64,000 bases of DNA. Origin: Tuwongella immobilis. Its GTDB lineage: Bacteria; Planctomycetota; Planctomycetia; Gemmatales; Gemmataceae. The stretch covers positions 5,122,920-5,186,919 of the forward strand of contig NZ_LR593887.1 in assembly GCF_901538355.1 (NCBI RefSeq). The letters run 5' to 3'. Numbering within the stretch: position 1 is the first letter of the stretch; each line of letters begins with the position of its first letter. A program made the translations under genes and the position numbers. The notes beneath the pieces are model-generated. The model was not told the origin of the DNA. It saw only the letters and a program-made list of their open reading frames with translations, and made no database searches. Positions 37,600 through 39,287 of this stretch are shown one piece after another.

Positions 37600-37842
37600 T
37601 CACCAGCGGCCGTATCGACCGCGGCCATACCCGAAGCCAGGGCCACCGAAGCCGCCGTAGCCAAATCCCGGTCGGCCAAATCCGCCGCCGCCGAATCCCA
37701 CACTAACGCCAACGCCGCGATATCCGGGGCCATCGCTCCCGGCAACGATTTGTTCCAATTCAATATCGGTCAATTCACGATCGACTCGTTGTTCGGGGGC
37801 CGGGGTGGAAGAGGTGGGTTGATGTGCTGGAATGTGCGTCAT
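37600..37842 (-). CDS. Leader-peptide-like small protein 1, Gly/Tyr-rich tail
   Basis: 80 residues; ATG 37842 with GGGAG eight bases upstream. Residues 21-35 read DRELTDIELEQIVAG, the pattern of bacteriocin or Nif11-type leaders ending before a Gly. The remaining 45 residues are a Gly/Phe/Tyr/Arg-rich core (GFGRPGFGYGGFGGPGFGYG). The leader position is the same, counted from the start, as in the second peptide at 37983-38147. It could be a ribosomally made, leader-cleaved peptide, a structural Gly-rich protein, or a family with leader-like N-termini. No processing enzymes other than the peptidase at 38313 are nearby. Confidence 0.75.
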   Translation of the reverse strand: MTHIPAHQPTSSTPAPEQRVDRELTDIELEQIVAGSDGPGYRGVGVSVGFGGGGFGRPGFGYGGFGGPGFGYGRGRYGRW

Positions 37843-37982
37843 CACAAGCTCCCTCGTGGAAGAACCAAAGATTCCACCCGACAAAGATTTTGCCGGGCGA
37901 CTCATCTATTCTATCCACGAGGTCGAACGATCCGGGTCACGGAACGATGTTTTTTCGATGCCGAAGTCGGCATCAGAAAGAC

Positions 37983-38147
37983 TTACTGCTTCCAACCATT
38001 GATGCTCAAACCACCGCGGCGAACCGGGTTGCTCGGTGCGCCACCAGCGACGATTTGTTCCAGTTCTTGCATGCTCAATTCGCGGTCAGCCTTGACTTCA
38101 ACCGGGGCGGAGATGCGGACTTCTTCGGTCTTCTTTTGTTCGATCAC
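37983..38147 (-). CDS. Leader-peptide-like small protein 2, double-glycine
   Basis: 54 residues. The GTG at 38147 is preceded by GGAGAA at the right distance, and this start puts the motif DRELSMQELEQIVAGG at residues 21-36, exactly aligned with peptide 1; an ATG at 38171 is the alternative. After the Gly-Gly come only 18 residues (APSNPVRRGGLSINGWKQ). This is a typical double-glycine leader plus short basic core. The peptide would be cytoplasmic until processed. Confidence 0.75.
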   Translation of the reverse strand: MIEQKKTEEVRISAPVEVKADRELSMQELEQIVAGGAPSNPVRRGGLSINGWKQ

Positions 38148-38312
38148 GGGGAATTCTCCGGTGAAAGCCATTCCAAACCATTCTCCAACCCATTGGCGAA
38201 TTTTGTTTGGAATTGCTCGCATGGATCATAGCTTAGCCATGCGACGATTGCTCCACAAGCGAAATTTCTAAAATTCCCAAATTTCCTATATTCATCGATT
38301 TCGGCTGATCCT

Positions 38313-39035
38313 TCATCGCGGCGAAAGCAGCGGGCGGACAGTTGGGGTTCCCGAATTCGGCGTCCATCGCAAGGGGATGCTCCAATCACCTTCTAGGTCG
38401 ATCCGCCGATCGAACAGCAGATTTCGGGGGAAGAGTGAGGTGGTTTTCACCGATTCCCGCATCTCCACAAGTCCTGTTTGCTTCAGGGCTTCCGCCACGA
38501 GTTGCGAGCAGAAATAAATGCGTTCGTCGGGTCGTGTCGCGCGATGGATCGGTCGGGGTAACAGCAAGCCGCCCAGCTGTGACTGCGAGGTAAACGCCCG
38601 TCCGATTCGCTCCTCCACGTATCGGGTGAGCTTCGCGGATTGCTCCGGCGTCAGCGGGCGAGTCCGGGCACGCACCCAAATGATCGGCTCATGTTTCTTG
38701 ATAATATAGTCTTCAATATACGATAAAAATCGATCTGGAATCGGTCGTGCGGTCACGGAGGATGCCCCGCCGCCGCCGACTTCAAAGACCATGAGTTCGC
38801 CAGTGGCCCGTCTTACGAGCATGGCCGAATGGTACGGATGCCCCGATCGTGCAAACCCGTACATAATGGAGAACGACCAATTTTTCGATGACATGAGCAA
38901 CACGTCACCTTCTTGAGGAACCCATGGGATGCCGCGATCGGTGTCTTGCTGCCGAATAAATCCGAACGGCTGCCCCGGCAATAGCACCGGCGGGAGAGCC
39001 GCGACGCTCCAAGCCAGCAACAACCCTGCGATCAT
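38313..39035 (-). CDS. Exported permuted-papain (YiiX/C92, NlpC-P60-like) cysteine peptidase
   Basis: 240 residues from ATG 39035 with GGGAGG seven bases upstream. Residues 1-20 form a signal or anchor (MIAGLLLAWSVAALPPVLLP). The permuted catalytic arrangement is visible: QEGDVLLMSS at about 41, His69 in GHPYHSAMLV and Cys176 in RIYFCSQLVAEALKQTG. In this family the His precedes the Cys. Members cleave amide or ester bonds in peptidoglycan or lipids. It lies between peptide 2 and peptide 3 on the same strand, so a role in handling those peptides is a reasonable guess but not shown. Confidence 0.8.
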   Translation of the reverse strand: MIAGLLLAWSVAALPPVLLPGQPFGFIRQQDTDRGIPWVPQEGDVLLMSSKNWSFSIMYGFARSGHPYHSAMLVRRATGELMVFEVGGGGASSVTARPIPDRFLSYIEDYIIKKHEPIIWVRARTRPLTPEQSAKLTRYVEERIGRAFTSQSQLGGLLLPRPIHRATRPDERIYFCSQLVAEALKQTGLVEMRESVKTTSLFPRNLLFDRRIDLEGDWSIPLRWTPNSGTPTVRPLLSPR

Positions 39036-39143
39036 CTGCATTCCTCCCGCGATCCGAATTTTCCGAATGCCCGGATTGCATCGGTTGAATCGCAGAAGGA
39101 ACTTCAAACTAGATTCCCAAGTCGCTGGCAAAGTCACCAACGT

Positions 39144-39287
39144 TTATTCTTTTTCTTTCTTCTCAGGCTTTTCTTTTTCATCGTCTTTCGGAGCCATCCC
39201 GCCTTGGATACCGTCCAGTTCCAATTCGGTGAGTTCCCGGTCTTGATGCGTGAGAACCGATCCAGACAAAGAAGCTACGCTTTGCAT
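39144..39287 (-). CDS. Leader-peptide-like small protein 3, double-glycine
   Basis: 47 residues, ATG 39287, stop TAA at 39144-39146; too short for usual gene finders. GGGAG stands eight bases before the ATG. The sequence has DRELTELELDGIQGG at residues 16-30, matching peptides 1 and 2, followed by a 17-residue highly charged tail (MAPKDDEKEKPEKKEKE). Upstream of the motif is a Ser/Val/Leu-rich stretch. Its tail shares nothing with the tails of the other two. Confidence 0.72.
   Translation of the reverse strand: MQSVASLSGSVLTHQDRELTELELDGIQGGMAPKDDEKEKPEKKEKE

What the first reader, a model, noticed from the sequence alone, without database searches (positions are those of the whole stretch)
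37600..39287. Cluster of three leader-peptide-like small genes with unrelated tails
Three minus-strand genes of 80, 54 and 47 residues share D-R-E-L-[TS]-x2-[EI]-E-L-[ED]-x-I-x2-G(G). In peptides 1 and 2 the motif starts at the same residue (21), which itself supports the GTG start of peptide 2. Behind the Gly the tails are a Gly/Tyr-rich 45-mer, a basic 18-mer and a charged 17-mer, so the leaders are conserved and the tails are not. This is the shape of a ribosomally made peptide system (double-glycine leaders). The third gene is below usual gene-calling length. The family and product are, as far as I can tell, undescribed.
Basis: partly seen in the sequence, partly recalled or inferred. Interest (0 to 1): 0.75.

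Follow-up and report, generated by a model that had tools for sequence, protein, structure and literature searches.

The report
Double-glycine leader peptides, transporter elsewhere
Three tiny neighbouring genes (and a fourth far away) encode short peptides with the same export tag and unrelated cargo ends, very probably cut and exported by the genome's one peptide-cleaving transporter; the tag is a well-known type, the cargo peptides are undescribed and their function is unknown.

Summary
Held-out profiles, shuffles and synonymous codon differences show real protein-level conservation. A fourth copy lies about 3 Mb away. The box is the classic C39 peptidase recognition box (Leu-12, Glu-8, Leu-7, Ile/Val-4). 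The genome has one C39 ABC transporter over cut-off, an NHLM-type cassette with HlyD partner and intact catalytic residues, about 3.2 Mb from the cluster. A scan of ~85,000 species with the box alone returned mainly NHLP, Nif11 and short double-Gly precursors; 14 of 15 such genomes carry C39. Corrections: the leader type is known (Haft 2010); by register peptides 1 and 2 end in Ala-Gly, not Gly-Gly; no modification or immunity gene was recognised nearby; 94 family relatives lack this leader, one having related ones. Verdict: new members of a known kind, real, product function unknown.

The parts
37600..37842 (-). Peptide 1 precursor, 80 aa; predicted leader 37738-37842 (35 aa, ends ...IVAG), core 37603-37737 (45 aa Gly/Tyr/Phe-rich, net +4)
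   Evidence: ORF and motif; GGAG 6 nt before ATG; codon usage
37983..38147 (-). Peptide 2 precursor, 54 aa from GTG; predicted leader 38043-38147 (35 aa, ends ...IVAG), core 37986-38042 (GAPSNPVRRGGLSINGWKQ)
   Evidence: ORF and motif; GGAG 8 nt before GTG, none before the ATG at 38171
39144..39287 (-). Peptide 3 precursor, 47 aa; predicted leader 39198-39287 (30 aa, ends ...IQGG), core 39147-39197 (MAPKDDEKEKPEKKEKE)
   Evidence: ORF and motif; GGAG 6 nt before ATG
37738..37782 (-). C39 recognition box of peptide 1, DRELTDIELEQIVAG
   Evidence: register of Leu-12/Glu-8/Leu-7/Ile-4 from PMC6363468
38043..38087 (-). C39 recognition box of peptide 2, DRELSMQELEQIVAG (a further Gly follows)
39198..39242 (-). 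C39 recognition box of peptide 3, DRELTELELDGIQGG
38313..39035 (-). Gene between peptides 3 and 2: secreted-looking permuted papain-like hydrolase (weak Peptidase_C92), start at ATG 39035 or 39041; probably not part of the peptide system
   Evidence: weak PF05708 match, below cut-off; conserved Cys178 and His71 among 28 relatives; relatives are not linked to leader boxes

Best explanation
The three genes, with a fourth at another place in the genome, encode precursors of small secreted peptides. Each precursor has a short N-terminal leader whose last 13 residues form a C39 recognition box; the C39 peptidase domain of the genome's single NHLM-type ABC transporter (encoded in trans, about 3.2 Mb away, beside its HlyD adaptor) binds Leu-12, Leu-7 and Ile/Val-4, cuts after Gly-1, and the ABC and HlyD parts export the core through the cell envelope. 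Shown: genes, box, single transporter with intact catalytic residues and adaptor, association of the box with C39 genomes elsewhere. Inferred: that this transporter takes these precursors, the exact cut sites, and secretion. The cores most likely work unmodified (bacteriocin-, signal- or surface-peptide-like); this last step is a guess (about 0.5).
For: Box fits the mutationally defined C39 substrate (PMC6363468) and the published NHLP/Nif11/class II bacteriocin logo (PMC2887384) at all defined positions except Gly-2 in peptides 1 and 2. One C39 domain over cut-off in the genome (E 1.9e-34), in a 712-aa protein scoring 828.5 bits for TIGR03796 (cut-off 853.3), next to a TIGR03794 HlyD above cut-off; Cys, His and Asp of the peptidase and the ATPase motifs are present. 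The box used alone as a DNA pattern over ~85,000 species found 18 stretches, most of them small ORFs in which the box ends the leader, several recognised as NHLP or Nif11 precursors; 14 of 15 of these genomes have C39 against 35 of 95 genomes of the window's family (Fisher p 4e-5; groups not matched by taxonomy). In the family only the window's genome and G081 have true double-Gly boxes, and both have the transporter. Synonymous codon differences, ribosome sites and codon use support translation.
Against: The transporter is not near the peptides, and no precursor was seen within the 20 kb around it. Peptides 1 and 2 have Ala at -2. NCBIfam precursor models do not call the three window peptides. 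No relatives with the same leaders, so no direct comparative proof of function; no expression data. No immunity or modification gene recognised nearby.
Confidence: 0.8

Rival explanations
1. The peptides are precursors of modified natural products (RiPPs): an enzyme encoded elsewhere binds the leader and modifies the cores before export.
For: NHLM transporters were described with modified precursors, which can lie far from their enzymes (PMC2887384); the genome has a class III/IV-like lanthionine synthetase; the fourth copy has a Cys/Ser core; G081 pairs a short double-Gly precursor with a graspetide-type ATP-grasp ligase.
Against: Window cores have no Cys and few Ser/Thr; the lanthionine synthetase has a Cys-rich candidate precursor of its own beside it; no relative of the graspetide ligase was found in the genome (no positive control); leaders lack NHLP or Nif11 domains.
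Confidence: 0.2
2. The hydrolase between peptides 3 and 2 (C92-like, permuted papain fold) is the dedicated processing enzyme of a local, transporter-independent system.
For: It sits between the peptide genes on the same strand; conserved Cys and His.
Against: It has a signal-peptide-like start, so probably acts outside the cytoplasm; relatives occur in 26 of 59 genomes with no leader box within 1.5 kb of those fetched; a C39 enzyme that fits the box exists.
Confidence: 0.05
3. The shared box is an intracellular protein-interaction motif or a remnant of duplicated genes, and the peptides are not exported.
For: Cores are unrelated and partly of low complexity; no secretion data.
Against: Close fit to C39 substrate rules and association of the box with C39 genomes; protein-level conservation of the box.
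Confidence: 0.1
4. Chance: not genes.
For: Short ORFs, one below usual calling length, no database family.
Against: 0 of 100 shuffles, held-out profiles, ribosome sites, synonymous differences.
Confidence: 0.02

Closest known systems
NHLP / Nif11 leader precursors with NHLM transporter (Haft, Basu and Mitchell 2010, PMC2887384)
   Same: Same 13-15 residue box ending at G-G or A-G, hypervariable cores, several paralogues per genome, same transporter type, precursors may lie far from the partner genes
   Different: Leaders here are about 23-35 aa with no nitrile-hydratase or Nif11 domain; no modifying enzyme recognised nearby
Short double-glycine leaders of class II bacteriocins / class II microcins (TIGR01847 type)
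   Same: Short leader of similar length, box E-L-[ST]-x2-E-L-x2-I-x-[GA]-G, C39 ABC plus HlyD export
   Different: No immunity gene seen, TIGR01847 model not triggered, cores unlike known bacteriocins
Unclassified ('Other') double-Gly precursors of cyanobacteria (PMC3140520)
   Same: Short precursors outside NHLP and N11P, diverse cores, C39 transporter
   Different: Those were collected within 20 kb of the transporter clusters; here the transporter is about 3 Mb away

Membership tests
C39 (AMS/PCAT) transporter substrates | Leu-12, Glu-8, Leu-7, hydrophobic -4 before the cut | tested here: met
   All three peptides and the fourth copy (rules from PMC6363468)
C39 (AMS/PCAT) transporter substrates | GG, GA or GS at -2/-1 | tested here: inconclusive
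   GG in peptide 3 and the fourth copy; AG in peptides 1 and 2, as in the NHLP precursor of L059
C39 (AMS/PCAT) transporter substrates | A C39 ABC transporter in the genome | tested here: met
   One, E 1.9e-34, with HlyD
C39 (AMS/PCAT) transporter substrates | Cleavage by the peptidase | not testable with these tools
   Needs protein
NHLP precursors (TIGR03793) | Nitrile-hydratase-like leader domain | tested here: not met
   No match
Nif11 precursors (TIGR03798) | Nif11-like leader domain | tested here: not met
   No match
NHLM transporter (TIGR03796/03794/03797) | Model scores over cut-off | tested here: inconclusive
   HlyD 271 bits over cut-off 156.2; ABC 828.5 against cut-off 853.3, best family by far; second ABC subunit not searched genome-wide
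Bacteriocin signal (TIGR01847) | Model match | tested here: not met
   No match reported at E up to 10, with HMMER filters on, which can lose so short a model
Class II microcin/bacteriocin | Immunity gene and antibacterial activity | tested here: inconclusive
   No immunity-like gene recognised by eye among ORFs of the cluster; activity not testable

The most novel reading that the evidence does not exclude
Bacteriocin-type leader and NHLM export have been put to use in this lineage as a general route for scattered small secreted peptides with unrelated cores, including a 45-residue Gly/Tyr/Phe-rich peptide that would act as a surface or matrix material and not as an antimicrobial.
Probability: 0.15. 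Interest if true: 0.5.

Novelty: new member of a known kind. Interest (0 to 1): 0.35.

Why it matters
It adds undescribed, probably exported peptides that are easily missed by gene callers, in a bacterial family where few genomes have this transporter type, and gives a short candidate substrate list (four) for an otherwise orphan transporter, testable with one protease domain and synthetic peptides.

Tried and rejected
Extra copies: weak hits in a 3785-aa protein and in G008 (LTDAELDQITAG-like, repeated) lie in giant surface-repeat-like proteins and are unrelated. One search read those loci on the wrong strand and was redone. Linkage of the C92-like hydrolase to leaders in relatives: none within 1.5 kb. 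Double-Gly ORFs beside the transporter: none with a relaxed pattern. Graspetide ligase in the genome: none, though without positive control. A lanthionine synthetase was found but has its own candidate precursor. Promoter scan was at chance level; of the terminator-like sites only a hairpin before peptide 1 stands out. PADLOC: nothing. Papers naming such peptides in Planctomycetes: none found in the held library; that the organism is a planctomycete is my inference from memory of such genomes and was not tested.

Full report
WHAT IS THERE. On the minus strand between 37600 and 39287 lie three short ORFs of 80, 54 and 47 aa, with a secreted-looking hydrolase gene (38313-39035) between the third and the second. 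Their 15-residue boxes are DRELTDIELEQIVAG, DRELSMQELEQIVAG and DRELTELELDGIQGG. Before the box and after it I see no likeness.

IS IT REAL. The DNA pattern of the box occurs three times in the window and never in 100 shuffles. As the pattern was made from the peptides, I also left members out: profiles from the other members find the missing one at genome-scaled E of 1.7e-5, 7.5e-4, 3.3e-3 and 0.012; with only two window peptides in the profile, 3e-5, 3e-4 and 0.21. Identical residues are often written with different codons (6 of 12 between peptides 1 and 2), as expected for selection on protein. Codon use resembles true genes. The GTG start is thus supported by two separate signs: the register of the motif and the ribosome site.

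THE BOX IS A C39 BOX. Counting back from the last Gly, each box has Leu-12, Glu-8, Leu-7 and Ile-4. Work on ComA and LahT defines this: Leu(-12)-x3-Glu(-8)-Leu(-7), with Leu-12, Leu-7 and Val-4 sitting in a hydrophobic groove, and the last 13 leader residues enough for cutting (PMC6363468). The published logo for NHLP and Nif11 leaders (acidic, Leu, Ser/Thr, then acidic and Leu at 6 and 7, Val/Leu at 10, Gly-Gly at 12-13) is the same (PMC2887384). By this register peptides 1 and 2 end in Ala-Gly, and the second Gly of peptide 2 is residue +1.

THE REST OF THE GENOME. A profile of the three boxes finds one more: a 38-aa ORF MMNITEPMDRDLSDLELDLVVGGLNRKDEEAEECSSCS at 2.21 Mb, with GAGG 8 nt before its ATG. 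A looser pattern finds these four and nothing else. The genome has one C39 domain over cut-off, in a 712-aa transporter whose best model by far is the NHLM export peptidase/permease/ATPase (828.5 bits, cut-off 853.3), with an NHLM HlyD adaptor next to it, over cut-off. Catalytic Cys, His and Asp and the ATPase motifs are there. It is about 3.5 Mb from the window along the contig, or about 3.2 Mb by the shorter way if the chromosome is circular.

ELSEWHERE. The box alone, scanned over one genome for each of ~85,000 species, gave 18 stretches where about one is expected by chance under even base composition (my own rough estimate). About 15 are ORFs in which the box ends a leader: NHLP (TIGR03793), Nif11 (TIGR03798) and short leaders. 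Of 15 such genomes searched 14 have C39, against 35 of 95 in the window's family. In that family the profile finds no convincing other member, and a broader pattern finds true boxes only in G081, which has an NHLP precursor, a short precursor followed by a graspetide-type ATP-grasp ligase, and the C39 transporter.

HOW IT MOST LIKELY WORKS. Precursors are made, the box docks in the C39 groove, the leader is cut off after Gly-1, and ABC plus HlyD export the core. One transporter would serve all four genes in trans, as described for NHLP and Nif11 systems, whose precursors can be far from their partner genes (PMC2887384). What the cores do is open: Gly/Tyr/Phe-rich (+4), basic (+3), Lys/Glu/Asp-rich (-1) and acidic with CSSCS (-3).

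WHAT DOES NOT FIT. No immunity or modifying gene was recognised nearby. A lanthionine synthetase of class III/IV type is elsewhere but has a Cys-rich small ORF of its own beside it. The hydrolase between the peptide genes has widespread relatives not linked to leaders.

VERDICT. Real; well explained as far as export; a known kind of leader; undescribed cores. The proposed refutation (no transporter) was tested and did not hold. Product function remains unknown.

Noticed in passing
L112:6437-10271 (G000:C1:6352436-6356270): Possible lanthipeptide-like locus: methyltransferase, a small ORF containing MANCGATCGATCTCSPACSHLPKAGNDTAKPVVSSDDLDALLAAVESISA (Cys-rich part first, helix-like part last), a 380-aa protein with sub-threshold RamC_N/HopA1 matches, and a kinase-LanC protein. 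Order of core and leader looks reversed; unproven.
   Followed up: partly
L107:7252-8484 (G081:C35): Short double-Gly precursor MSDELSPEELENVAGG... directly before a graspetide-type ATP-grasp ligase (TIGR04187/MvdD-like, below cut-offs), in a genome with an NHLM-like transporter.
   Followed up: partly
38313-39035: Permuted papain-like (weak Peptidase_C92) hydrolase with signal-like start; up to five copies per genome in relatives at about 30-39% identity.
   Followed up: partly
L007, L008, L012, L075: Giant surface-repeat-like proteins carry a recurring LTDAELDQITAG that mimics the leader box.
   Followed up: no
37874-37900: 12-pair hairpin on the minus strand just before the ribosome site of peptide 1, weak T tail; could be a terminator after peptide 2 or a 5' UTR element.
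   Followed up: no
37943-37975: Perfect 7-pair hairpin GATGCCGACTTCGGCATC shortly after the stop of peptide 2, followed by an A-run and not a T-run on the minus strand.
   Followed up: no
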